A stretch of DNA of 42,444 bases, taken from assembly GCF_010672455.1 (NCBI RefSeq), contig NZ_JAAHGO010000012.1, positions 312,651 through 355,094 of the forward strand, in the 5' to 3' direction. Shown here one piece after another: positions 6,776 through 37,836 of this stretch; position 1 is the first letter of the stretch; each line of letters begins with the position of its first letter. The position numbers and the translations under genes were made by a program. The notes beneath the pieces are model-generated. The model saw nothing but the letters and a program-made list of their open reading frames with translations. It made no database searches and had not been told where the DNA came from. The DNA comes from Okeania sp. SIO2C9 (lineage in GTDB: Bacteria > Cyanobacteriota > Cyanobacteriia > Cyanobacteriales > Microcoleaceae).

Positions 6776-8659
6776 TTATTCACAACGCCAAATTTTTACA
6801 GTATTGTCACTACTTCCACTCACAATTGTATTATCATAGCCGCTAATTGCCACAGAATTTACATCCTTAGAATGCCCGTTTAAAGTCTTAATAACTTCTC
6901 CAGTTTCCATCTGCCAAATCTTAATAGTTTTATCTGCACTGCCACTAATTATTGTTTTTTTATCCAAACAAATTACAGACCTAACCCAATCAGAATGCCC
7001 AGTAATTGTTTTGATTAATTTACCTGTTTCTACAGACCATAATTTAATTGTTTTGTCGCTACTACCACTGACTAAAACTTTACCATCAGGACTAAAAGCA
7101 ATTGTATTAATATCTCTAGTATGTCCGATTAATTTATCTATAAGATTACCTGTTTCTACTTCCCATAATTTAATCACATTGTCACTACTACCACTAGCAA
7201 GAATTTTACCATCTGGGCTAAAAGCAACTACATTAATGCCACGAGAATTTTTGATGCTGTACAAAAGTTGACAAGTTTCTTGATGCCAAATTTTAATAGT
7301 CCGGTCATCACTTCCACTGGCAATAAAATCTCCATTTGGGCTAAATACTACTGGCATTGAAACAATAGAATCAGAATGTCTGGATAAACTACAACTGATA
7401 GTTCCTGTAGCTAAATCCCAAATATTAATAATTCCACCGACATTACCAATAGCTAGGATATTACTTTTAGGATTAAAAGCAATTGATAAAACTATATTAG
7501 AAGTTATAAAAGAGTCTAATAATTCTCCTGTAGATAATTTCCACAATTTAATAGTTCGGTCAAAACTACCACTAGCAATCATTTGATTATCTGGGCTAAT
7601 AGCAACTGATGAAACTGAGCTTAAATGACCGGAAATAGTTTGAGGTTTTCCCCAAGAATAAAGATGTAATCCTGGTACATAATTTGTATCTTTGAGAGAA
7701 ATTTTTGGGAATGAAAATTGGAGAAAAGATGGTGTGGGTGGGGGTGGTAATTTCCCATGATTTAAATCTTTTAAGACATCTTTAGCAGACTTATAACGTT
7801 TGTTTGTACCTTCAGAAATTAATTTATTGAGAATATTTCCCAATTCTTTGCTAATCGGATTATCAATTAAATAATCTCGCCATACCCATTTATTTTCCCC
7901 AGTATCAAATAGTTTAAATGGAGAAATATTGGTTAGTAAATTGATGCAGGTTACGCCTAAACTGTATAGGTCACTGGCAAAATTTGCTCTACCTTTGAGT
8001 TGTTCTGGGGCTACATATTCGGGAGTACATAATATTGTGCCTGGTTTAAATATTGGAGTTCCAGTCAACTGTTTTGCTACATCAAAATCTACTAATACAA
8101 ATTGACCTTTTATTCCAGCTTGATAAGCAGAATTTGATGGTAAACGACGAATTATATTTTCAGGTTTAATATCTTGATGAATAATTTTGTGGGAGTGAAT
8201 AAATTCTAGCACTGGCAGAAGACTATTTAATAGTTCTCGAATTTGATATTCGGAAAATATTCCTTCTGTTTCTAAAACTTGAGCTAAATTTTTTCCAGGT
8301 ATAAATTCTTGGACTAAATATTGACAATAATCATCGTGTAAATTGGCTAATAATTCAGCTATTTGAGGATGTGTTCCTAAAGTATCTAGTTTTCCTGCTT
8401 CTTCTTCAAACAAAGCGATCGCTCTTTTTATATCTACTTCATTTTGTGAGATAAAATAAAATTGTTTAATTACACATGGTGGTTTAGAAGGTTTATCTTG
8501 ATCTACTGCTAAATAAGTTTTACTTAAGCCTCCTTGACCAATCATTTTAATTGCTCGATAGCGGTCTTTTAGAAGTAACATAGAACCACAGGTTAAACAG
8601 ATTCTCGTTTCTGGTGGAGAATTAGGATTTTTGCAATTTTCTTTAAGGCAGTAATTCAT
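6776..8659 (-). CDS. Zinc-ribbon Ser/Thr kinase-like protein with WD40 propeller (atypical catalytic motifs)
   Basis: A 627-residue signalling protein. Residues 4-24 form a zinc ribbon (C4, C9, C21, C24). A Hanks-type kinase domain follows at about 34-300, with the ATP-binding lysine in CVIKQF (K65). The catalytic loop reads HQDIKPEN instead of HRD, and the metal-binding motif reads DFD instead of DFG. The glycine loop is also altered (GQGGLSKTY). After a proline-rich linker, seven WD40 repeats (about 340-627) form a full propeller. The kinase may therefore be weak or a pseudokinase scaffold, while its paralogue at 9509-11407 has canonical motifs. AGGAG about 12 bp upstream supports the start. 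It is probably the last gene of the minus-strand signalling island, although a repeat-filled 0.85-kb gap precedes it. Confidence 0.93.
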   Translation of the reverse strand: MNYCLKENCKNPNSPPETRICLTCGSMLLLKDRYRAIKMIGQGGLSKTYLAVDQDKPSKPPCVIKQFYFISQNEVDIKRAIALFEEEAGKLDTLGTHPQIAELLANLHDDYCQYLVQEFIPGKNLAQVLETEGIFSEYQIRELLNSLLPVLEFIHSHKIIHQDIKPENIIRRLPSNSAYQAGIKGQFVLVDFDVAKQLTGTPIFKPGTILCTPEYVAPEQLKGRANFASDLYSLGVTCINLLTNISPFKLFDTGENKWVWRDYLIDNPISKELGNILNKLISEGTNKRYKSAKDVLKDLNHGKLPPPPTPSFLQFSFPKISLKDTNYVPGLHLYSWGKPQTISGHLSSVSSVAISPDNQMIASGSFDRTIKLWKLSTGELLDSFITSNIVLSIAFNPKSNILAIGNVGGIINIWDLATGTISCSLSRHSDSIVSMPVVFSPNGDFIASGSDDRTIKIWHQETCQLLYSIKNSRGINVVAFSPDGKILASGSSDNVIKLWEVETGNLIDKLIGHTRDINTIAFSPDGKVLVSGSSDKTIKLWSVETGKLIKTITGHSDWVRSVICLDKKTIISGSADKTIKIWQMETGEVIKTLNGHSKDVNSVAISGYDNTIVSGSSDNTVKIWRCE

Positions 8660-8976: not shown

Positions 8977-9306
8977 AAAAAGGTGCTTTAGAGGAGCTTA
9001 ATTGACATAATAATAATTTTTGACTTTTGATTTTTGACTTTTAACTTAAAAAAGGTGCTTTATAAGAGTTTAATTGACATAATAATAATTTTTGACTTTT
9101 GACTTTTGACTTTTAACTTAAAAAAGGTGCTTTATAAGAGTTTAATTGACATAATAATAATTTTTGACTTTTGACTTTTGACTTTTAACTTTTAACTTAA
9201 AAAAGGTGCTTTAGAAGAGTTTAATTGACATAATAATAATTTTTGACTTTTGACTTTTGACTTTTAACTTAAAAAAGGTGCTTTAGAAGAGTTTAATTGA
9301 CATAAT
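8977..9306. repeat. 72-bp tandem array with internal TTTTGAC heptamers
   Basis: Five successive units begin with AAAAAGGTGCTTTA. The GGTGC landmark falls at 8982, 9054, 9126, 9205 and 9277, giving spacings of 72, 72, 79 and 72 bp. The one longer unit has exactly one extra heptamer (TTTTAAC). Each unit contains AATTGACATAATAATAATTT followed by runs of TTTTGAC. The fifth unit is interrupted by the element at 9308-9436. Confidence 0.9.
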
Positions 9307-9307
9307 C

Positions 9308-9436
9308 AGGATTTACGCACGGACACTAAATCTAGTGAGGGCGTTTTGCTCCGCAACATATAAAGCGGAGCTTGACGTTAGTCAATGCCATTCGCCCCTA
9401 CATATGAGGTTTTAAAGGTTAATTTGCGTAAGTCCT
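9308..9436. repeat. 129-bp MITE-like element, AGGACTTACGCA family, inserted in the array
   Basis: The left end is AGGATTTACGCA and the right end TGCGTAAGTCCT, an 11 of 12 inverted repeat. Inside is a GCTCCGC..GCGGAGC hairpin and CATTCGCCCCTAC. The flanks (GACATAAT on the left, AATAATAATAATTTTT on the right) rebuild the fifth unit of the 72-bp array, so the pre-insertion site can be inferred. The exact target duplication is masked by the AAT repeats. Confidence 0.85.
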
Positions 9437-9508
9437 AATAATAATAATTTTTAACTTTTAACTTTTAACTTTTAATTTTTGACTTTTGACTTTTGACTTT
9501 TGACTTTA

Positions 9509-11407
9509 TTACTGTTGCCAAATTTTAATTGTATTATCACTACTACCACTAGCTAAACTCTTTCCGTCCTGGGAAAAAGTAACAGAATTAACATATTTTG
9601 AATGACCTTCTAAATTGGCTATTTGCTGACCTGTTTCCCAATACCAAATCTTAATAGTTTCATCTTCACTACCACTAGCAATAATATCTCCTTGAGGACT
9701 AAAAGCTATGGCACAAATATCTCTTGAATGTCCCTCCAAAGTCTTTAATATTTCACCTTTATCTATTTGCCAAATTTTAATATTTCGATCGCGACCACCA
9801 CTAACTAAAGTTTTACCATCATAGCTAAAAGCAACTGCATAAATATAATGTATCCCCTGATAATAGTTGCATAGAGTCTGAACAGCATTACCTAAATTTA
9901 GATCCCATAATTTAATCGTATTATCTTCACTGCCACTCGCCAAAATTTTCCCATCAGGACTAAAAGCGATCGCACGCACTGGTTGTAAATGTCCAGTCAA
10001 AGTCATTATCACTTTCCCATAGTTAGGATCGTAAATATCGTCCCCAAGTCGCCAAATTTTAATATTGTTATCCTTACTTGCGCTAGCCAAAATTTTGCCA
10101 TCGGGACTGAAGGCGATCGCCATTACTCCCTTAGAATGACCAAAATATTCTCCCAGACTCCAGTCACCAAGAATACAAAGAAGTTTCCCTGTTTTAACTT
10201 CCCAAAGTCTAATAGTTTTGTCTTCACTCCCACTAGCTAAAATTTTGCCATCCCGACTAAAAGCAACAGAGTTTACATAACCAGAATGTCCAAACATAGT
10301 CAATATTTCTCTACCACTATCTACTTGCCACAACTTAACAGTTTCATCCTCACTCCCACTTGCCACAATATTGTCATCAGGACTAAAAGCAACGGAGCAA
10401 ACCCATTTTTGATGACCTATGAGAGTATGTAGACATTTCCAAGTTTGAGTCGGTAGGGGTTCAGGTGTAACCTCCGGAGTTTGGATAGCAGTTTTATCTT
10501 GAATACGAGTCAAGTTGACTTGAGTATTAGCATTTAAAGTTTTGATGACTTCATAAACAGACTGATAGCGACGGTTAATCGCATTTTCCACCAGTTTATC
10601 TAAAACATAACCCAACTGTTCGCTCACAGAATTACTCTTTAAATAACGTCGCCACACCCAAGTACCTTCACCCACATCAAATAACTCAAATGGGGAAATG
10701 TTGGTCAAAAGATGTAAGCAAGTTACCCCCAAACTATATAAGTCACTCGCAAATACTGCTTTGCCTCGGTTTTGTTCGGGGGGAGTATATTCCGGAGTGC
10801 CAATAGTAGTACCTGTTTTCAACAGTGCTGTACCGAGAGCATATTTGGCAGCACCAAAATCTACTAATACTAATTGACTGTCATTGTTTTGACGACGAAT
10901 AATATTGTCTGGTTTGATGTCGCGGTGAATAACATTGTGAGAGTGGATAAATTGCAGGACTGGCAGTAAATTTTTGAGTAAAGCTTTAATTTTCTCTTCA
11001 TTGTAAGGCCCTTCGACTGCCAGAGCTTGGCCTAAATTTTGTCCGTCGATGAATTCTTGCACTAAGTATTGTCGCCCATCCTGGATGAAGTGGGCCATTA
11101 ATTCGGGGATTTGGGAATGTCTGCCCAATTCGTCTAATCTTGTAGCTTCTTTTTCAAAGAGTTGGGCAGCTTTACTGATATTGTTTGTGCCTTGGGATGC
11201 TGGGAAAAATTGTTTAATTACACAATAGGGTTTGGAAGGTTTATCTTCGTCGATAGCTAAGAATGTTCTGCCAAAACCTCCTTGTCCAATGAGGTTAAGG
11301 GGACGATAGCGGTCTTTGAGTAGTAGTTTTGAGCCACAGTTTTGACAGTATATGTTCCAGTCTGGGTTTTGGGGAATTTGACAGTTGGGGTTGAGGCAAT
11401 GACTCAT
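9509..11407 (-). CDS. Zinc-ribbon Ser/Thr protein kinase with WD40 propeller
   Basis: A 632-residue protein with the same architecture as its paralogue at 6776-8659. The zinc ribbon has C4, C9, C21 and C24. The kinase domain has canonical motifs: GQGGFGRTF, ATP lysine in CVIKQF (K65), catalytic HRDIKPDN, DFGAAK and GTPEYTPPEQ. Seven WD40 repeats follow from about residue 340 to the end, most ending in IKIW or IKLW. It is expected to be an active cytoplasmic kinase whose propeller binds partners or substrates. It lies downstream of the Hsp70-like gene and two unknown proteins on the same strand, 0.5 kb after the latter, so it may belong to that transcription unit. The high similarity to the neighbour indicates tandem gene duplication. 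Confidence 0.95.
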   Translation of the reverse strand: MSHCLNPNCQIPQNPDWNIYCQNCGSKLLLKDRYRPLNLIGQGGFGRTFLAIDEDKPSKPYCVIKQFFPASQGTNNISKAAQLFEKEATRLDELGRHSQIPELMAHFIQDGRQYLVQEFIDGQNLGQALAVEGPYNEEKIKALLKNLLPVLQFIHSHNVIHRDIKPDNIIRRQNNDSQLVLVDFGAAKYALGTALLKTGTTIGTPEYTPPEQNRGKAVFASDLYSLGVTCLHLLTNISPFELFDVGEGTWVWRRYLKSNSVSEQLGYVLDKLVENAINRRYQSVYEVIKTLNANTQVNLTRIQDKTAIQTPEVTPEPLPTQTWKCLHTLIGHQKWVCSVAFSPDDNIVASGSEDETVKLWQVDSGREILTMFGHSGYVNSVAFSRDGKILASGSEDKTIRLWEVKTGKLLCILGDWSLGEYFGHSKGVMAIAFSPDGKILASASKDNNIKIWRLGDDIYDPNYGKVIMTLTGHLQPVRAIAFSPDGKILASGSEDNTIKLWDLNLGNAVQTLCNYYQGIHYIYAVAFSYDGKTLVSGGRDRNIKIWQIDKGEILKTLEGHSRDICAIAFSPQGDIIASGSEDETIKIWYWETGQQIANLEGHSKYVNSVTFSQDGKSLASGSSDNTIKIWQQ

Positions 11408-15956: not shown

Positions 15957-16799
15957 ATGCAGTCTGGAAAAATCCTGAGAAACCACTACAAAATTATCGA
16001 CTCTCTCGGAAGTGGAGGATTTGGAGATACCTACTTAGCAGAAGACTTAGACTTACCAGGAAAACCGAAATGTGTCCTTAAGCATCTTAAACCTAAAGGA
16101 AGCAAAAGAAGGGATTTACCTTTTCTGCAAAAATTCATCCCTTGGTTGAGCAACAATAAAAGTTCAGACCCAGAAGTTTTAGCTATTGCCCAAAAATTAT
16201 TTGAGAGAGAAGCAAAGACTCTCTACAAATTAGGCAAAGACTCAGACCGAATACCAAAATTATTTGCACATTTTCAGGAAGGAACAGAATTTTACCTAGT
16301 ACAAGAATATATAGAAGGGCACGATATTAGTAGAGAACTTACGTCGGGGAGAAAATTAAGCGAGTCTTATACCATTGCCTTACTCATAGGAATATTAGAA
16401 GCATTAGCAGTAGCTCATCAAAATAATATTATTCATCGAGACATTAAGCCACAAAATTTGATGCGTCGTAAGTCGGATAACAAAATAGTATTGATAGATT
16501 TTGGGGCAGTAAAAGAAATAAGTGTATTAACTAGAACTAACCAACCAGGAACAACTACTTTAACTGTAGCAGTCGGAACACCTGGGTATATGCCAAGCGA
16601 ACAAAGTAATGGGAAACCAAAATTGAGTAGCGATATTTATGCAGTGGGAATGGTAGGAATAAAAGCACTAACAGGAAAAGAACCAAAAAACTTACCAACA
16701 GACTCAAAGACAGGAAATATTATCTGGCGAAATGAAGCACAAGTGAGTGACGACCTGGAAAATATATTAGATAGGATGGTGCGGGAATATTTTTCATAG
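15957..16799 (+). CDS. Ser/Thr protein kinase domain, N-terminal half of a broken kinase-FGE gene
   Basis: A 280-residue Hanks-type kinase. It has a glycine loop GSGGFGDTYLA at residues 18-28, ATP lysine in CVLKHL (K42), catalytic HRDIKPQN, DFGAVK and GTPGYMPSEQ, so it should be active. The frame ends at TAG 16797-16799 just after MVREYFS. The next codons in the same frame read RYENAMKVLEVL and continue directly into the proline-rich and FGE part at 16815-18170. Kinases of this type normally run through this point as one helix (FxxRYxxAxxVL), so the TAG most simply replaces a CAG glutamine codon. It may be a true nonsense mutation, a sequencing error or a read-through site. Confidence 0.9.
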   Translation: MQSGKILRNHYKIIDSLGSGGFGDTYLAEDLDLPGKPKCVLKHLKPKGSKRRDLPFLQKFIPWLSNNKSSDPEVLAIAQKLFEREAKTLYKLGKDSDRIPKLFAHFQEGTEFYLVQEYIEGHDISRELTSGRKLSESYTIALLIGILEALAVAHQNNIIHRDIKPQNLMRRKSDNKIVLIDFGAVKEISVLTRTNQPGTTTLTVAVGTPGYMPSEQSNGKPKLSSDIYAVGMVGIKALTGKEPKNLPTDSKTGNIIWRNEAQVSDDLENILDRMVREYFS

Positions 16800-16814
16800 C
16801 GTTATGAAAATGCC

Positions 16815-18170
16815 ATGAAAGTATTAGAAGTATTAAAAGTATTAAATTTTCAAACTCCACCACCCCCTCCACCAGAACCAACACCAGAACCAACACCAGA
16901 ACCAACACCAGTCCCCCCACCTATTCAAACAGAAACAGTAGTAGCAAAACCCCAACCCCAACCTAATAAAACGAATAAAACTAGAAGACAAATATTGATA
17001 TTAGGAGGTTTGGCAGGAAGTGGGTTTGTCGCAGCAATATTAAGTAGAGGTTTTGGGAATAAACCATCTCCAGAAAATGTTTCTACTTCCCAACCAACTT
17101 CAGAACCAACACCAGAAAATATTTATCCCCCCGAACCAACAAGAGAAACTCCCCCTCCACTATTAATATTAGGAGGTTTGGCAGTAGGTGGGTTTGTCGC
17201 AGCAATATTAACTAAATATTTGTGGAGTAAAACACCTCTAGAAAATATTTCTACTTCCCAACCAACTTCAGAACCAATACCAGAATCTCCCCCTCAACCA
17301 CAACCCACACCAAAACCTACCCCTCCACCACAACCAAAATTTCCCATTCAGACATTTACTACCATCACAGTTAACAGGAGAGGAGAAATAATAAGTCGCC
17401 GTAAAGGTAAAGCAGAAGTAATCACAGAAAATCTCGGTAATGGAGTCTCCCTAGAAATGGTAAAAATTCCTGGAGGTAGATTTCTCATGGGGTCTCCAGA
17501 GACAGAAGCAGAAAGAGATGATAGTGAAAGTCCGCAACATTATGTAGATGTGCCAGAATTTTTCATCGGAAAGTATCCAGTCACTCAAGCACAATGGCAA
17601 GCAGTTATGGGAAATAATCCTTCTTCTTTTAAAGGAGCAAACCGTCCTGTAGAAAATGTAAGTTGGAACGACGCGACAGAATTTTGTCAGAAACTCTCAC
17701 TTAGAACAGGTAAAAAATATAGTTTACCCAGTGAGAGTCAGTGGGAATATGCTTGTCGAGCTAGAACTTCCACACCATTTCATTTTGGCGAAACTATAAC
17801 GTCTGAGTTAGTTAACTATTTTGGCAACTATCCTTACGGCGATGCACCTAAAGGAAAATATCGTAAAGAAACAACAGAAGTGGGAATTTTTCCACCCAAT
17901 AATTTTGGTTTGTACGATATGCACGGTAATGTTTGGGAATGGTGTCACGATGTTTGGCACAGTAACTATGAAGGAGCGCCTACTAATGGTAGTGCTTGGG
18001 AAACTGGAGGAGATAGTCGTAGAAGACTGCTCCGTGGTGGTTGCTGGTACAACGATTCTTGGTATTGCCGGTGTGCCAGGCGCGACTATGACTATGCCGA
18101 CGTCCTCAGCTACTATAGGGGTTTTCGGATCGTCTCGTCTTCTCCGGTGGTTTCTGCCTTTCGTTCCTAG
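16815..18170 (+). CDS. Proline-rich, membrane-anchored FGE-sulfatase domain protein with DGR-like variable tip
   Basis: A 451-residue frame, the C-terminal half of the kinase gene before it. The order is: the end of the kinase helix; a proline/glutamate repeat linker (PEPTPEP); a hydrophobic segment ILILGGLAGSGFVAAIL near 55-72; a second, similar one (LLILGGLAVGGFVAAIL near 117-133); another proline-rich linker; then a formylglycine-generating-enzyme-like domain from about 200. That domain shows EMVKIPGGRFLMGSP, VTQAQWQAVMGNNPSSF, RPVENVSWNDATEFC, LPSESQWEYACRA and GLYDMHGNVWEWCHD. The last 46 codons, from RGGCWYNDSWYCRC onward, have the composition of a DGR variable region. ATG 16815 is only the first ATG after the TAG, with no ribosome-binding site, so independent translation is doubtful. 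Confidence 0.88.
   Translation: MKVLEVLKVLNFQTPPPPPPEPTPEPTPEPTPVPPPIQTETVVAKPQPQPNKTNKTRRQILILGGLAGSGFVAAILSRGFGNKPSPENVSTSQPTSEPTPENIYPPEPTRETPPPLLILGGLAVGGFVAAILTKYLWSKTPLENISTSQPTSEPIPESPPQPQPTPKPTPPPQPKFPIQTFTTITVNRRGEIISRRKGKAEVITENLGNGVSLEMVKIPGGRFLMGSPETEAERDDSESPQHYVDVPEFFIGKYPVTQAQWQAVMGNNPSSFKGANRPVENVSWNDATEFCQKLSLRTGKKYSLPSESQWEYACRARTSTPFHFGETITSELVNYFGNYPYGDAPKGKYRKETTEVGIFPPNNFGLYDMHGNVWEWCHDVWHSNYEGAPTNGSAWETGGDSRRRLLRGGCWYNDSWYCRCARRDYDYADVLSYYRGFRIVSSSPVVSAFRS
18033..18170 (+). other. Putative DGR variable region at the 3' end of the FGE domain
   Basis: Between the invariant RGG-W and GFR-V landmarks, codons 18042-18116 are almost all NNC or NNT: TAC, AAC, GAT, TAT, GCC, CGC, GAC, GTC, CTC, AGC. 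This is what adenine-specific mutagenesis of AAC and AAT codons produces. The conserved 3' part (18120-18170) is GC-rich against an AT-rich background, as in the initiation-of-mutagenic-homology end of such regions. FGE/C-type-lectin folds are the standard targets of diversity-generating retroelements, and kinase-FGE targets are known in cyanobacteria. No template repeat with AAC codons and no DGR reverse transcriptase was found in this window, so it would be a remote target. Confidence 0.75.
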
Positions 18171-18267
18171 GAATCTTCCCCTTTATTCTTTTCCTCTTTT
18201 CCCCTTTTCTCTCTTTTTCTTTTTTCTTTCCTCCCGCGAAGCAGGTCAAATTTTTTTTTAAGAGCGG

Positions 18268-19640
18268 GACAAGTCAGGGCAAGACAGGGATTTTGTTACC
18301 GAGAAATTAAGGTAAGGTATAAAGCCTCTCCATTCATGGGAGAAAGAAAAAAAAAATTCCTTGAGCGCTAATCCTTCTATTACAGAAGAGGTAATTATTC
18401 ATTATTGTAAGGATGCAGGGATGATAAAATCTGCATTTTGTGGAGCTACAAGATGCCGAAAAGACTTTCCCCCTTGCGTTGAGAAAAAATTTCTGATACA
18501 ATTTATTCATTGGGGCTTGTTCGCCCCTACACATGACTTTTTATTCAACACAAAAAATACCCCACAACTGAATGAGTCATATCGAAGTTTTAAATCTTCC
18601 CTCTTTAAATCTCTGTATTTTTGATCCTCATTCCTTAAGTTTAGCGATCGCCTAATTCAATATAATCCTGACAAATTCAGCATTACCCAAATCCCAAACA
18701 ACCGTGAAAAAGTCAGAGTAAGACAAGGATTTTGCCACAGATGCACAGATAAGAAGATTTGCATTGTGTGAAGCTACCAAAAAAATCCGCAAGGATATTC
18801 CCCTTGCCAGCAGAAAAAATTTCTGATACAATTTAGTTATTGGGGGTTGTTTGCCTTTACGCATGACTTTTTATTCAACACAAAAAATACTCCACAACTG
18901 AATGAGTCATATCTAAGTTTGAAATCTTCACTCTTTAACTTCTGTATTTTTGATCCTCATTCCTTAAGTTTAGCGATCGCCTGATTCATAGAATCCTGAC
19001 AAATTCAGCATTGCCTAAATCCCAAACAACCGTGAAAAAGTCAGAGTAAGACAAGGATTTTGCCACAGATGCACGGATAAGAAAGCTTGCATTGTGTGAA
19101 GCTACCAAAAAAATCCGCAAGGATATTCCCCTTGCCAGCAGAAAAAATTTCTGATACGATTTAGTCATTGGGGGTCGTTCGGCTATAAGCATGACTTTTT
19201 GTTCAACACAAAAAATACCCCACAACTGAATGAGTCATATCCGAGTTTGAAATCTTCCCTCTTTAATCTCTGTATTTTTTATCCTCATTCCTTAACAGTA
19301 GCGATCGCCTGAATCAATAGAATCTTGACAACTTCCGCATTGCCTAAATCCCAAACAACTGTCAGATAAGTCAGAGCTAGACTTGGATTGCCACTGATGC
19401 AGAAACAATGAATCTAAATCTGCATTCTGTGAAGCTACTAAAAAAATCGGCGAGAAAAGGAATTTCCCCTTGCATCGGCAAAAAATTTCTGATATGATTT
19501 AGTCATGGGGTGTCGTTCGCCCCTGCACATGACTTTTTGTTCAACACAAGAAATAGCCCACAACAGAATAAGTCATTTCAAATTTTTCAACCTTTGCCCT
19601 TTAAATTCTGTATCTTATTAAATCCTCATCCTTGACCTTA
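18268..19640. repeat. Four degenerate ~330-bp tandem units with coding remnants on the minus strand
   Basis: The landmark AAAAAATTTCTGATA recurs at 18484, 18814, 19142 and 19480, giving periods of 330, 328 and 338 bp. Each unit has CATGACTTTTTNTTCAACAC, a HIP1 octamer and GTCAGAGTAAGACAAGGATT-like sequence. On the minus strand, units 2 and 3 keep open frames encoding TKLYQKFFLLARGISLRIF and SYSDFFTVVWDLGNAEF. Unit 4 reads TYLTVVWDLGNAEVVKILLI in frame to a stop but has a stop earlier. The first unit carries extra sequence near 18290-18420. This looks like a small gene amplified in tandem and then decaying. The protein family is not recognised. Confidence 0.75.
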
Positions 19641-20448
19641 GCGATCGCTATCTGAAAAGTTTTAATTATCAATCTCAGTTTCTAATTTTAAAATTTTCAA
19701 CTTTGTCATCAATCTCTGACAAAAAACATCAAAAAAAACCTAAATTAGCCAACAGAATTTCAATAGTTTCAGCCTTTTTGCGATAAAATCAAGAAATTAT
19801 AATCAAAGGGTAATTATTACCCAATGGAAATTTTCAGCCCAAAACCCTAATTATTTCGTTCTTTAAGTAAGCGATCGCCTAAAATTGATTCAACGATGAT
19901 GAACTAATTTTTGTCAGTTACTCTCATAGTAGTTTGACGTATTTATAAATATATGGTAAGCAAAAAAAATCAATGAAATAGACCGAGAATAAGAACAATA
20001 ATCCTCTTATCCACCGTTTGACTTAACCTGATAACGACTCAATGGATAGACAACTGAATAAACTTACTCATTTTAGTTTGATAGCTATATTTATGAGTAA
20101 GTTTAATAAATTTTAGAGAAGTTTTTGCTTTCTGTATTTACCCCTAAAAATTGTATCAAATCCGCTTAATGAGGTATAAAAAAATTTTACATCTTCAGCA
20201 AAGAGGAAATCTTTCTAAATTCTCTTCCCTTCCGACTCCTGTACAGGGGAATTGCCATTCGCCCCTACAACCCCTGACTCCTAGATTAACTTTCCAAATA
20301 TACCGATGCTACCAGATTTGATATTAGACATCTCCAAACAATAAAAAATAAAATCAATTATCGTACAGAAACCACCAATTATTTCACCCTATTTCCTACT
20401 CCCTAAAATTTACCGAATAATTAATTATTAATTGTTAATTGTTAATTG
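19641..20448. other. Intergenic region without recognisable genes
   Basis: AT-rich DNA after the tandem units. It has one HIP1 octamer near 19872, a GAATTGCCATTCGCCCCTACA phrase near 20249 that recurs in other spacers, a CATCTCCAAA phrase near 20329 that recurs at about 39816, and a TTAATTGTTAATTG run at 20424-20448 next to the sodX stop codon. No tRNA or small gene was seen. Confidence 0.6.
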
Positions 20449-31755: not shown

Positions 31756-32442
31756 TTGATTACTTTAACTTACCAATATAAACTTAAGCCAAACAAACAA
31801 CAAGAAACTGAAATAAACCAGATTCTTGATGTTTGTAGAACTGTGTATAATTATGCTCTGAGAGAGCGTAAAGATTGGTTAAGTTCAAGGAAAGTAGCAA
31901 TTAATAGTTGCTCAATTCTAGCTGAATATATTATCCAGGCTGATGCAGCTTATCCTAATTACAATTATCAAGCCAAAAACCTAACAATAGTTAAGAAGAA
32001 TAATCCCAGAATAAAGTCAGTTAATACTCAAGTTTTACAACAAACTTTAAAGACTTTAGACAGAAAATTTTCTGAAATGAAATATCTTGGTAAAGGCTTC
32101 CCTAGATTTAAGAAAAAGTTGAGAAGCTTTGTTTTTCCTGCTATGCTGAAAAACTGTCTAGGTAATAGTAGATTTAAACTCCCTCAGCTAGGTTGGATTA
32201 AAATCAAACAAAGTAGGCCATATCCGGAGGGTTTTCAAGCTAAACAAGCTAGGATAGTGAGAAAAGCTACTGGTTATTATTTGATGATTACCTTTTCTTC
32301 ATCAGAGTCAGTTCCAGAAAATCCAGTAGGTGAAAGGTCATTAGGCATTGATGCCGGAATCGAAAGTTTTGTCGCTACTTCAACAGGAAAGTTAATCAAA
32401 TCTCCTAAGTTTTTGTTAGGTCAACTGCGCGAGCTTAAATTG

Positions 32443-32640
32443 GCGAGGGACCCCGCGTCGCCTCCAGGCACAAGCGGTCAGACCCCGCGTCGCCTCCAGG
32501 CGCAAGCGGTCGGAACCCGCGTCGGCGTCAGACGCAAGCGGTCGGAACCCGCGACGACGCCAGTCGCAAGGGAACGCCGACCAAGAGAGGGAACGCCGAC
32601 CAAGAGAGGGAATGCTGACCAAGAGAGGGAACGCGCGAGC
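32443..32640. repeat. GC-rich in-frame tandem repeat insertion in tnpB
   Basis: It contains about four units near 33 bp (CCCGCGTCGCCTCCAGGCGC, then AAGCGGTCGGA) followed by about three units of 19-20 bp (GGGAACGCCGACCAAGAGA). The 198 bp equal 66 codons, so the tnpB frame is preserved. GC content is far above the surroundings. A 10-bp GCGCGAGCTT occurs at 32427 and 32633, at either end of the block. Confidence 0.85.
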
Positions 32641-33000
32641 TTGCTGCAAAGAAGACTTAAGAAAAAAAAGAAGGAGTCAAGTAATTGGTTAAAACTTCAG
32701 AACAAGATAGCTAGGCTACATGAAAAAATAGCTGATGCTAGACGAGATTGGCATTTCAAACTAGCCCATCAACTTTGCGATTTAACAGATAATATTTTTG
32801 TTGAAGATATTAACTTCAAATCTTGGTCTAGAGGTATAGTTAGAAAACAGTCTTTAGATTCTGGTATAGGTCAATTTATCAACGAAATACTTCTTTATAT
32901 ATTCTGGAAAAGAGGTAAGTATTACGCCAAAGTTGACAAAAATTATACTTCTCAAGAATGCCCTAAATATGGTCATATAGGGAAGAAAAAACTTTCTGTT

Positions 33001-33021
33001 TGCGTAGCATTCCGTAGGAAT
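33001..33021. repeat. 21-bp small dispersed element inside the tnpB zinc finger
   Basis: TGCGTAGCATTCCGTAGGAA plus one T inserts seven codons (CVAFRRN) between LSV and RKHNC. Near-identical sequences occur at 28316-28336, and in the other orientation at 8786, 8826, 24354 and 39545. Confidence 0.85.
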
Positions 33022-33078
33022 AGAAAGCATAATTGCAGCCATTGTAATTATCAAGAAAATCGCGATGTAGCTGCTGCA

Positions 33079-33120
33079 CCCACCCCCATCCCCTCCCGGG
33101 AGGGGAGCAAGAGGGGTGGG
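33079..33120. repeat. 42-bp palindromic element inside tnpB, copy 2
   Basis: It matches 28981-29022 with a few substitutions (CCCACCCCCATCCCCTCCC and GGGAGGGGAGCAAGAGGGGTGGG). It is inserted after the DVAAA motif, and its right boundary creates the TGA stop. Confidence 0.88.
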
Positions 33121-33301
33121 TGAGGATTGATAGCGGTAGGGCATACCGTTAAAGAAGAAGCTTGTGGAAACGGTCTGACAGGGGTACAACTCAACTTGTT
33201 TGATTTGTTATCTAGTTAAGAGTTCTTGAAGCAAGAATCACTCGTTATAATCTCCGATTTAACGGGCGAGTGTCAATGAATAAGTTACTCTTCATAGTGC
33301 T

Positions 33302-35855: not shown

Positions 35856-36054
35856 TATTTTTTTTCTTTTGGGTTTAATACCCCGCCTTCACCTGCGGTG
35901 TTTACAAGCTTGTTGGGGTTTGAGTCCCCATCTACTTTTTCTTCCTTCTTCCTTCTTCCTTCTTCCCTCTTCCTTCTTCCTTCTTCAAGCTCAATATTTA
36001 CATCAGTAGCATAGTTAGAGTCGATAGGAGCGTCTCCACTTCTACCTCTCCTTC

Positions 36055-36089
36055 AAAACCGGACGTGAGACTTTCACCTCATCCGGCTC
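36055..36089 (-). ncRNA. Group II intron domain V
   Basis: A 35-nt hairpin starting GAGCCGG and ending CCGGTTTT, with a GAAA-type loop (GTGAAAGTC). It is the most conserved ribozyme element and carries the AGC triad, confirming that the adjacent reverse transcriptase belongs to a group II intron. Confidence 0.85.
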
Positions 36090-36120
36090 CTCAATAACTC
36101 CATCCTTGTTATGGATACGT

Positions 36121-37836
36121 TCAGACTTTCTCGTTCTTGCTCTTGTGGAGGGAGCCATCTGATACAGTCTTAGTGTCATGGCAATGTTTGTGTAAAAGTT
36201 GTAAGTTATCGTAGGTGTCTTTTCCACCCAGACTTTTAGGCACTATATGGTCAACTTCTGCAATGTCTGTATCTGTGAAATACAGACCACAGTGGGGGCA
36301 TTTCCCTTTTTGCCGTTTCATTAATTTGGCTACCCTTGTGGGTGTTCCGGGATATTCCCCTTTACGCTTGCTCCAATATTTCCAGTCACCATTGTACGGA
36401 CTAACCTCTCCCTTGACTTTGATATGTCTAATAATGGGAGTTTCTGAGTGTGTTCTTAGTCTTAATCCGTTTTCTGTGCTGAAACACCAATGTTGTTCGC
36501 CTACCGTTCTCCAGTATTTGTCCTTATTGATGCTACCTTTTCCCCGACCTTTTGCCCACGCTCTTAGTTTTTGATACACAAGGTAATCTAATCTTGAAAA
36601 TGTTTCCTTGCTAACTACGGTCGAGTAATAGTTTGACCACCCGCGTATAATTGGGTTCAGCTTGCTTATGAGGGCAGCTTGTGGGGCAGTCTTATGGGTG
36701 TCTATTACTTCCCCGATTTTATTTAGATGAGCCTTGATGCACTTTTTGGAGGGGGTGATTAGTGTATTAAAACCTAGAATTTCTTTGTGCGGATTCTTTG
36801 CACTTCTGTAGTTTCCTACTTTGTACTGTTGTATGTGGAATCCTAGAAACTCAAACCCAGTTTCCTTCTCGTGTGTTCTGAGAGTATGGGTTAATCTTGT
36901 TTTTTCCGGTTTTTATTCCAATCCCATGTCACTTAGCCACTCTTCAATTATTTGTTGGCAGGATTTAATCACACCTAAGTCCTCATGGATTATCACAAAG
37001 TCATCGGCGTAACGGATTAGGTTCATTTTATCCTGGTTTGCTTTTTTGCCACCTTTAAGGGTTCTTGCAAATTCCTTAATCCGTTCTTCCATACCATGTA
37101 AGGCAATGTTTGCCAATAGAGGTGAAATTGTTCCTCCCTGTGGTGTACCCTTATTAGTAGGGAAGAAATTATCTCCCTGGTCAATGTATCCTGCTTTTAA
37201 CCATTGTTTTAGAATCCGGTTAAGGATGGGGTATGTATTGACCTTCTTAAGCAGAGCTTGGTGGTTGATACGGTCGAAACATTTTGATATATCCGCGTCA
37301 AGCACATATTTGGCTTTGTACCGGATACTATTAAATATGGCTCCGATACCATCGTGGCATGAGCGTCCTGGTCTAAAACCATAACTGTTTGGCTCGAATT
37401 TGGCCTCCCATTCTGGTTCTAACGCTTGTTTTACTAGCGTCTGCAAGGCACGGTCATAAATTGTCGGTATTCCTAGGGGTCTTTTCTCGTCACTGTTTGG
37501 TTTTGGAATCATTACCCTCCGTGTCGGGCGTACTTTCCCAGTAATTCTCAAGTTGTTTGCTAGGTTCATACGGGCTTTTGGGGACAATGATTTGACACCA
37601 TCCACTCCTGCCGTCTTTTTCCCTTGGTTATCCTGAGTGACCTTCCTTACCGCAAGTAATCTTGCTGACCAAGACCTAATCAACGTTTTTTGAAGCTTGC
37701 GTACTGCTTTAACATCACCACGTTTACTCGCTTGAAATATTCTCTTTTGCAACTTAAATGTTCGTATTTCGACTTTACGCCAATTTACGTTGTCCCATTC
37801 CATCATCGGGTTTTCCTGTGCTTTAGACTTATTCAT
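36121..37836 (-). pseudogene. ltrA: Group II intron reverse transcriptase/maturase with one internal stop
   Basis: The frame starts MNKSKAQENPMMEWDNVNWR and contains the RT blocks: RRVMIPKPNSDEKRPLGIPT, SYGFRPGRSCHDGI, DADISKCFDRI, GTPQGGTISPLLAN and the catalytic LIRYADDFVII. The frame stops at TAA 36915-36913 after LSDMGLE, yet the same frame continues at once with KPEKTRLTHTLRTHEKETGF and runs 263 more codons through the maturase (X) domain to an HNH endonuclease: CPHCGLYF, then VDHIVPKSLGGKDTYDNLQL and HCHDTK, ending at 36121. Without the stop it would be a 571-residue protein of normal size. One nonsense change, probably of a leucine TTA, inactivates it unless the base is an error. Confidence 0.9.

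What the first reader, a model, noticed from the sequence alone, without database searches (positions are those of the whole stretch)
18033..18170. FGE domain of a kinase fusion ends in what looks like a DGR variable region
Seen: between RGG-W and GFR-V nearly every codon is NNC or NNT (TAC, GAT, TAT, CGC, GAC, GTC, CTC, AGC). This is the outcome expected when AAC and AAT codons of a template are mutated at adenines. The following 50 bp is GC-rich, like the fixed end of such regions. Known: FGE/C-type-lectin folds are the standard targets of diversity-generating retroelements, and remote targets exist in cyanobacteria. Inference: this kinase fusion has a hypervariable ligand-binding tip diversified in trans, because no template or DGR RT lies in the window.
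Basis: partly seen in the sequence, partly recalled or inferred. Interest (0 to 1): 0.9.

Follow-up and report, generated by a model that had tools for sequence, protein, structure and literature searches.

The report
Kinase-linked sensor diversified in trans
The end of a kinase-linked sensor gene in a large-genome cyanobacterium matches a template stored on another contig at every letter except 14 template adenines, so a mutation-making retroelement very probably rewrites it from a distance; that retroelement unusually carries two separate templates for one enzyme.

Summary
Window 18029-18170 is the variable repeat (VR) of a diversity-generating retroelement (DGR). Its template, TR2, lies on another contig (G000:C2; L028:10477-10618), just downstream of a DGR reverse transcriptase with an Avd gene. 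Over 142 bp the VR differs from TR2 at 14 of 31 adenines and 0 of 111 other positions. A search with this RT found no second one like it in the genome (next best 27% identity).

That one RT is flanked by two complete template RNAs. TR1 matches the VR of the cis target (10 of 31 A, 0 of 96 non-A); TR2 has no cis target and matches two remote kinase-FGE genes, this one and C250. Both are followed by the same structured spacer RNA (Rfam RT-14; TR1's copy scores under the gathering cut-off), and their differences inside helices keep all pairs. Of 21 DGR loci checked, only this one has a second template-plus-spacer.

Remote kinase-lectin targets of cyanobacterial DGRs are published (PMC7517822), so the window feature alone is a new member of a known kind; one RT with two templates splitting cis and remote targets is the variant. 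The window gene has an in-frame stop between kinase and FGE parts, absent from the G002 orthologue. Present activity is inferred, not shown.

The parts
15957..16799 (+). Ser/Thr protein kinase ORF (280 aa), ends at an in-frame TAG near the end of the kinase domain
   Evidence: Pkinase E 7.7e-30, best stretch residues 80-259; stop positions; the G002 orthologue is open for 726 codons
16815..18170 (+). FGE/C-type-lectin ORF (451 aa) with proline-rich linker; the remote variable protein
   Evidence: FGE-sulfatase E 6e-55; fold like Treponema denticola variable protein 1, PDB 2y3c, TMq 0.76, sequence E 1.9e-24
18029..18170 (+). DGR variable repeat (VR), 142 bp, matching TR2
   Evidence: 14/31 template adenines changed, 0/111 other positions
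18042..18116 (+). Hypervariable codons of the VR: all 14 changes lie here; 13 of 25 codons changed
   Evidence: codon table
18117..18170 (+). Constant 3' tail of the VR, identical to TR2 (long type); the presumed address region
   Evidence: TR1 has a 15-base shorter tail
18171..18240 (+). Pyrimidine-rich flank resembling that after the C250, C256 and cis VRs; the TR-VR match ends at its start
   Evidence: sequences printed; no 8-bp hairpin directly after the VR was reported

Best explanation
Window 18029-18170 is a remote DGR variable repeat. TR2 (L028:10477-10618 = G000:C2:242476-242617) is transcribed with a structured spacer (transcription inferred). The Avd-RT pair copies it with errors at adenines (inferred from the family), and the cDNA replaces the matching 3' end of FGE-domain genes elsewhere in the genome, including this one and the one at C250:20652. 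The FGE (C-lectin) tip is thereby varied; 13 codons differ from the template (shown), presumably changing what the kinase-linked sensor binds (inferred). The same RT has a second template, TR1 (L028:8195-8321), whose 3' tail differs and which matches the cis target VR. The two tails therefore probably act as addresses that assign targets to templates (inferred from perfect tail matching of three VRs).
For: TR2 vs window VR: A 14/31, C 0/37, G 0/36, T 0/38. TR2 vs C250 VR: 9/31 A and 2/111 non-A, both non-A differences within the first 10 positions. TR1 vs cis VR: 10/31 A, 0/96 non-A. Window VR against the wrong template TR1: 10/96 non-A differences and a 15-base gap. RT: PHROG 1423 'Reverse transcriptase' E 5.9e-121; closest PDB sequence 8ub7_A, E 1.9e-52, named only 'Reverse transcriptase' in that list (I recall it as the BPP-1 DGR complex). 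Avd: Pfam bAvd and PHROG 'Avd protein of DGR'. A search of the own genome with this RT (all 41 candidates scored) gave next-best 27% identity. Spacer RNA RF02921: TR2 at 48.4 bits (gathering 48.1), TR1 at 44.1, under it. 39 of 40 consensus pairs form in each, and the 6 differing paired columns all keep pairing, one pair by a double change. Consensus structure over 21 sequences: 95.5% of cells paired against 81.6% in shuffles, 29 of 40 pairs with two-sided changes. Apart from the terminal TAG codon, no adenine change in TR1 or TR2 can give a stop codon.
Against: No reads or near-identical strains were available, so ongoing diversification is not shown. The gene is split by a stop codon in this genome, so selection on the hypervariable tip may be relaxed. 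In 17497-17916 the FGE part is closer to the C250 paralogue (5-10% different) than to its G002 orthologue (11-19%; G004 9-11%), so some of the VR could have come with a gene-conversion tract rather than by direct retrohoming. No BPP-1-type hairpin was reported directly after the VR. C256 fits neither template cleanly (8/96 non-A differences to TR1, 15/111 to TR2).
Confidence: 0.92

Rival explanations
1. The VR pattern was made elsewhere (in a gene beside the DGR) and reached this locus by duplication or gene conversion between FGE paralogues; there is no homing in trans.
For: FGE part closer to paralogue C250 than to the G002 orthologue in 17497-17916; many FGE paralogues in the genus (list cut).
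Against: Window and C250 VRs differ from each other at 14 of 31 adenine sites but only 2 of 111 others, so the two patterns are not copies of each other. The only VR found beside the DGR belongs to TR1, not TR2.
Confidence: 0.15
2. A relic: homing stopped after the gene was split by the stop codon, and the VR is decaying.
For: In-frame TAG between kinase and FGE. In the four congeners searched (G001-G004, drafts) no match to this RT at E <= 1e-30 was found, and the 8 congener VRs compared all carry non-A differences to TR2.
Against: 0 of 111 non-adenine differences to TR2, whereas the G002 orthologue has 8 of 111; RT and Avd are open frames and both template RNAs keep their pairs. The FGE ORF restarts with an ATG 15 bases after the stop codon.
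Confidence: 0.25
3. Ordinary fast evolution of a binding loop, with the codon bias being chance.
For: FGE/lectin tips are variable in many families (recalled).
Against: All 14 differences on adenines of one strand of a template beside a DGR RT, P 3.3e-11.
Confidence: 0.01

Closest known systems
Remote variable proteins of cyanobacterial DGRs (PMC7517822; results section parts 1 and 2 of 3 and passages read)
   Same: C-lectin domain at the C terminus fused to a Ser/Thr kinase, VR at the 3' end, DGR elsewhere in the genome; kinase is the most common partner domain there.
   Different: Here the gene is split by a stop codon, and the RT has two templates; the words 'TRs' and 'two TR' gave no hits in that main text; its supplements were not seen.
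Thiohalocapsa PB-PSB1 DGRs (PMC10907252; section 8 and passages read)
   Same: Targets at DGR 4 and 5 match the DGR 2 template perfectly at all non-adenine sites; trans action inferred, with read-level variation at those targets.
   Different: There several DGR loci serve each other; here one RT carries two templates.
DGRs with more than one TR (PMC6642488; section 13 and passages read)
   Same: 216 of 271 multi-VR DGRs have only one TR, hence by subtraction 55 do not; names Stenotrophomonas sp. SKA14 with two TRs and six VRs.
   Different: No partition of cis and remote targets between templates and no spacer RNA per template in the section read; one of its multi-TR examples shows few A-to-N changes.
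Trichodesmium erythraeum IMS101 DGRs (PMC8867640; passages read)
   Same: A relative with two DGR RTs and several mapped target genes in one genome, surveyed in marine metagenomes.
   Different: Two RTs rather than one RT with two templates.
Bordetella phage BPP-1 DGR (PMC3240598 and PMC12875486; passages read)
   Same: RT, Avd, TR with structured spacer RNA, A-directed change, constant 3' tail.
   Different: Hairpin directly after VR in BPP-1, not found here; BPP-1's own target is in cis.
Treponema denticola variable protein 1 (PDB 2y3c)
   Same: FGE-type C-lectin fold; Foldseek rank 3, E 8.1e-19, TMq 0.76.
   Different: Not kinase-linked (recalled).
Rfam RF02921, RT-14 RNA
   Same: Matches begin at the first base after each TR: TR2 over the gathering score, TR1 under it.
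   Different: What its authors said of DGRs could not be read; the recalled source paper is not held.

Membership tests
DGR variable repeat | Repeat differs from a template almost only at template adenines | tested here: met
   14/31 A, 0/111 non-A
DGR variable repeat | VR at the 3' end of a C-lectin/FGE gene | tested here: met
DGR cassette (supplying locus, G000:C2) | DGR-type RT and Avd next to a template | tested here: met
   TR1 and TR2
DGR cassette (supplying locus, G000:C2) | Structured spacer RNA after the template | tested here: met
Cyanobacterial remote variable protein | Kinase-CLec gene more than 5 kb from the RT, matching its TR | tested here: met
   different contig
Cyanobacterial remote variable protein | Kinase and CLec in one protein | tested here: not met
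   TAG between them in this genome; the sister gene C250 (654 aa) and the G002 orthologue are single frames
BPP-1-type target site | 8-bp-stem hairpin/cruciform directly after the VR | tested here: not met
   at the stop codon only a 10-base palindrome in window and cis and an 8-base one in C250; a 6-bp stem lies about 67 bases further on in cis (for C250 5 of 6 pairs were shown)
Active DGR | A-directed variants within a population | not testable with these tools
   no reads; orthologues compared instead
Formylglycine-generating enzyme | Catalytic activity and active-site cysteines | not tested
   only fold and Pfam match

The most novel reading that the evidence does not exclude
One reverse transcriptase runs two template RNAs with different 3' address tails: TR1 for the sensor next to it, TR2 only for remote kinase-linked sensors, so the cell can diversify two classes of sensor separately. 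Both tail types occur among FGE genes of related genomes, and one orthologous locus has the long tail in two genomes (G000, G002) and the short tail in another (G004), which suggests that a target can change its template over evolution.
Probability: 0.45. Interest if true: 0.65.

Novelty: new variant of a known kind. Interest (0 to 1): 0.52.

Why it matters
It gives a natural system for asking how a DGR chooses among many targets: two templates, one enzyme, targets in cis and in trans, with the parts identified. If the 3' tail is the address, retargeting by tail exchange becomes testable in a laboratory cyanobacterium. It also ties Rfam RT-14 to the DGR spacer RNA, which could make further cyanobacterial templates easier to find.

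Tried and rejected
A template in the window: a search of the genome with the VR gave no second place in the window; the window RT (36913-37836) is a group II intron RT.

TR1 as the template of the window VR: rejected, 10/96 non-A differences and a tail gap.

C256, C13 and the five VR-like places at C24:541549-548246 as current targets: C256 is a doubtful older target (8/96 non-A against TR1); the other six have 24 or more non-A differences to TR1 and 33 or more to TR2, so they were not counted as targets.

Hairpin after the VR as in BPP-1: not found.

Automatic template counting (30 RT loci): a template was found in 21 (L028 and 20 others), one further hit (L170) is far from the RT and doubtful, 8 gave none. 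L058, one of the 8, does have a TR-VR pair when aligned directly, and L166 and L169 (the same places as L123 and L126) have an upstream spacer match. The method cannot see a template whose targets are all remote (it missed TR2 itself), so looked for second template-plus-spacer copies in those 21 loci: only L028 had one. L053 has a 38-base piece of the spacer at its contig end, and L054 has short copies of a stretch about 170 bases after its template.

For the RNA alignment A1, 21 of the 22 stretches listed were given; L171 was left out because its downstream part looked different by eye.

Void results: the cis VR row was off by one base and is discarded (searches give the count); the first divergence table was empty through a slicing error and was redone.

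Literature: searches. 'two template' with DGR gave 0 papers, 'multiple TRs' gave 1 (PMC4891356, passages only; it speaks of several TRs per person), 'Okeania' with 'diversity-generating' gave 0. PMC8144416, PMC3521204 and PMC8867640 were seen as passages only. A report of one RT splitting cis and remote targets between two templates was not seen in these searches; most papers of subscription journals are not held, and supplements were not read.

Full report
Observation. The described stretch is real. In codons 18042-18116, 21 of 25 end in C or T, against a mean of 11.2 and a maximum of 19 in 380 overlapping windows of the same size upstream in the ORF. The FGE domain match (Pfam E 6e-55, residues 214-440 of 451) runs into it. 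The kinase ORF (15957-16799) and the FGE ORF (16815-18170) are separate frames because of a TAG.

The template. A search of the own genome (10.88 Mb, 317 contigs) with 17960-18200 gave, besides the window itself, 18 places (the weakest, E above 0.1, look like chance), among them G000:C2:242476 beside an RT. There (L028) lie, in order: a TPR-FGE target gene with its VR, template TR1 (8195-8321), Avd (9038-9373), RT (9394-10455) and template TR2 (10477-10618). The window VR equals TR2 at all 111 non-adenine positions and differs at 14 of 31 adenines, 9 to T and 5 to G (P 3.3e-11). C250's VR differs from TR2 at 9 of 31 adenines and at 2 of 111 others, both within the first ten bases (P 1.6e-5). 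The cis VR differs from TR1 at 10 of 31 adenines and 0 of 96 others (P 2.1e-7). These three VRs fit the other template worse, much of it in the 3' tail, where TR1 is 15 bases shorter than TR2. Of ten VR-like places compared, three fit a template this well; C256 is intermediate and six are diverged.

The machinery. The RT matches PHROG 1423 at E 5.9e-121 and Pfam RVT_1; the small upstream protein matches bAvd and 'Avd protein of DGR'. In the own genome the next match to this RT has 27% identity, so one DGR RT appears to serve all targets. Directly after each template comes a conserved RNA. RNAalifold on 21 sequences (TR1, TR2 and 19 relatives) gave 40 pairs; 29 show two-sided changes and 95.5% of cells pair against 81.6% in shuffles, with slid versions at 32-46%. 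The structure was derived from this same alignment, which favours it over the slid versions. The RNA matches Rfam RF02921 (RT-14): TR2's copy passes the gathering score and TR1's falls short (48.4 and 44.1 against 48.1). After the template end, TR1 and TR2 differ at 12 alignment columns; 6 lie in helices and all keep pairing, one pair by a double change. This supports two functional template RNAs rather than one plus a relic.

How unusual the second template is. Of 21 DGR loci tested for a second template-plus-spacer copy, only this one has it. In the 20 other loci with an automatically detected template it lies downstream of the RT in 19, where TR2 lies, and upstream in one, L162; two more loci (L123, L126) show upstream spacer matches. 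So TR2 sits at the usual place and TR1 is probably the extra copy. Trichodesmium loci L053 and L058 have TR2-type long tails in both template and target.

Relatives. RT identity is highest to Hydrocoleum, Okeania and Trichodesmium records (87-90%). In the four congeners searched, G001-G004, FGE-kinase genes are present but no match to this RT at E <= 1e-30 was found; they are drafts, and 17, 17, 10 and 17 candidates were scored. The orthologue in G002 is one open frame of 726 codons; that in G004 is interrupted early, at codon 113. The G002 VR differs from TR2 at 18 of 31 adenines and 8 of 111 other sites, as expected if no matching template acts there. Long and short tails both occur in the 13 VRs listed (one, G001_C268, has lost the usual tail), and the orthologous locus is long-tailed in G000 and G002 but short-tailed in G004.

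Protein. The FGE domain model (27 sequences, mean pLDDT 81.1) is weak at 122-138, 140-147 and 246-252; ten-residue blocks over the hypervariable codons are 51, 86 and 91, so the tip is only partly reliable. Its best PDB matches are PvdO and T. denticola variable protein 1, a DGR target (that it is a DGR target is recalled). No adenine change in TR1 or TR2 can produce a stop codon except at the terminal TAG codon.

Mechanism. Shown: template, target, adenine-only differences, one RT of this type, two template RNAs that keep a conserved structure. Inferred: transcription, error-prone copying, homing in trans, tails as addresses, ligand-sensing role. Retrohoming in trans is the simplest reading, because no target of TR2 was found beside it and window and C250 carry different adenine patterns. 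Gene conversion between paralogues has probably also shaped the gene, so it may have moved VRs too.

Known or new. Remote kinase-lectin targets of cyanobacterial DGRs are described in PMC7517822; perfect non-adenine matches to a distant template are used as evidence for trans action in PMC10907252; DGRs with several TRs are counted in PMC6642488. What I did not find in the searches named under Tried and rejected is one RT with two spacer-bearing templates that divide cis and remote targets. I therefore file it as a new variant of a known kind; the window feature on its own would be a new member of a known kind.

Noticed in passing
window 17357-18028 against 15957-17076: The kinase and linker part differs 1-6% from the G002 orthologue, but the FGE part differs 11-19% (G004: 4-16%) and is closer to paralogue C250 at 17497-17916 (5-10%): likely domain-level conversion between paralogues.
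   Followed up: partly
window 17000-17225: A hydrophobic segment, the first copy after a twin-arginine-like motif, appears twice in the linker and could be a membrane anchor or signal (read by eye; function inferred).
   Followed up: no
G000:C24:539858-544771 (L031:4859-9772): A 1637-aa ORF with a kinase-like start and four FGE-like repeats in tandem (read by eye), with diverged VR-like stretches.
   Followed up: partly
window 18482-19648: 328-bp tandem repeat, 3.5 copies, 86% matches, just downstream of the gene; similar pieces beside the G002 and G004 orthologues.
   Followed up: no
window 36014-37836 (-): Group II intron with domain V and an RT whose frame is broken by a stop codon.
   Followed up: no
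L028:10619-10760 and 8322-8463: Rfam RT-14 RNA coincides with the DGR spacer RNA after each template, suggesting the family is part of a DGR template RNA.
   Followed up: partly
L149:5135-5182, L150:7871-7918, L151:6146-6193: About 45 bases of the spacer RNA occur alone, without an RT or template match in the fetched stretch; possible DGR relics.
   Followed up: no
window 6776-8659 and 9509-11407 (-): Two kinase-WD40 genes near the kinase-FGE gene.
   Followed up: no
window 31756-33123 (+): An OrfB/IS605-type transposase (TnpB-like) gene; PMC7517822 reports IS200/IS605 transposases near cyanobacterial DGR targets.
   Followed up: no
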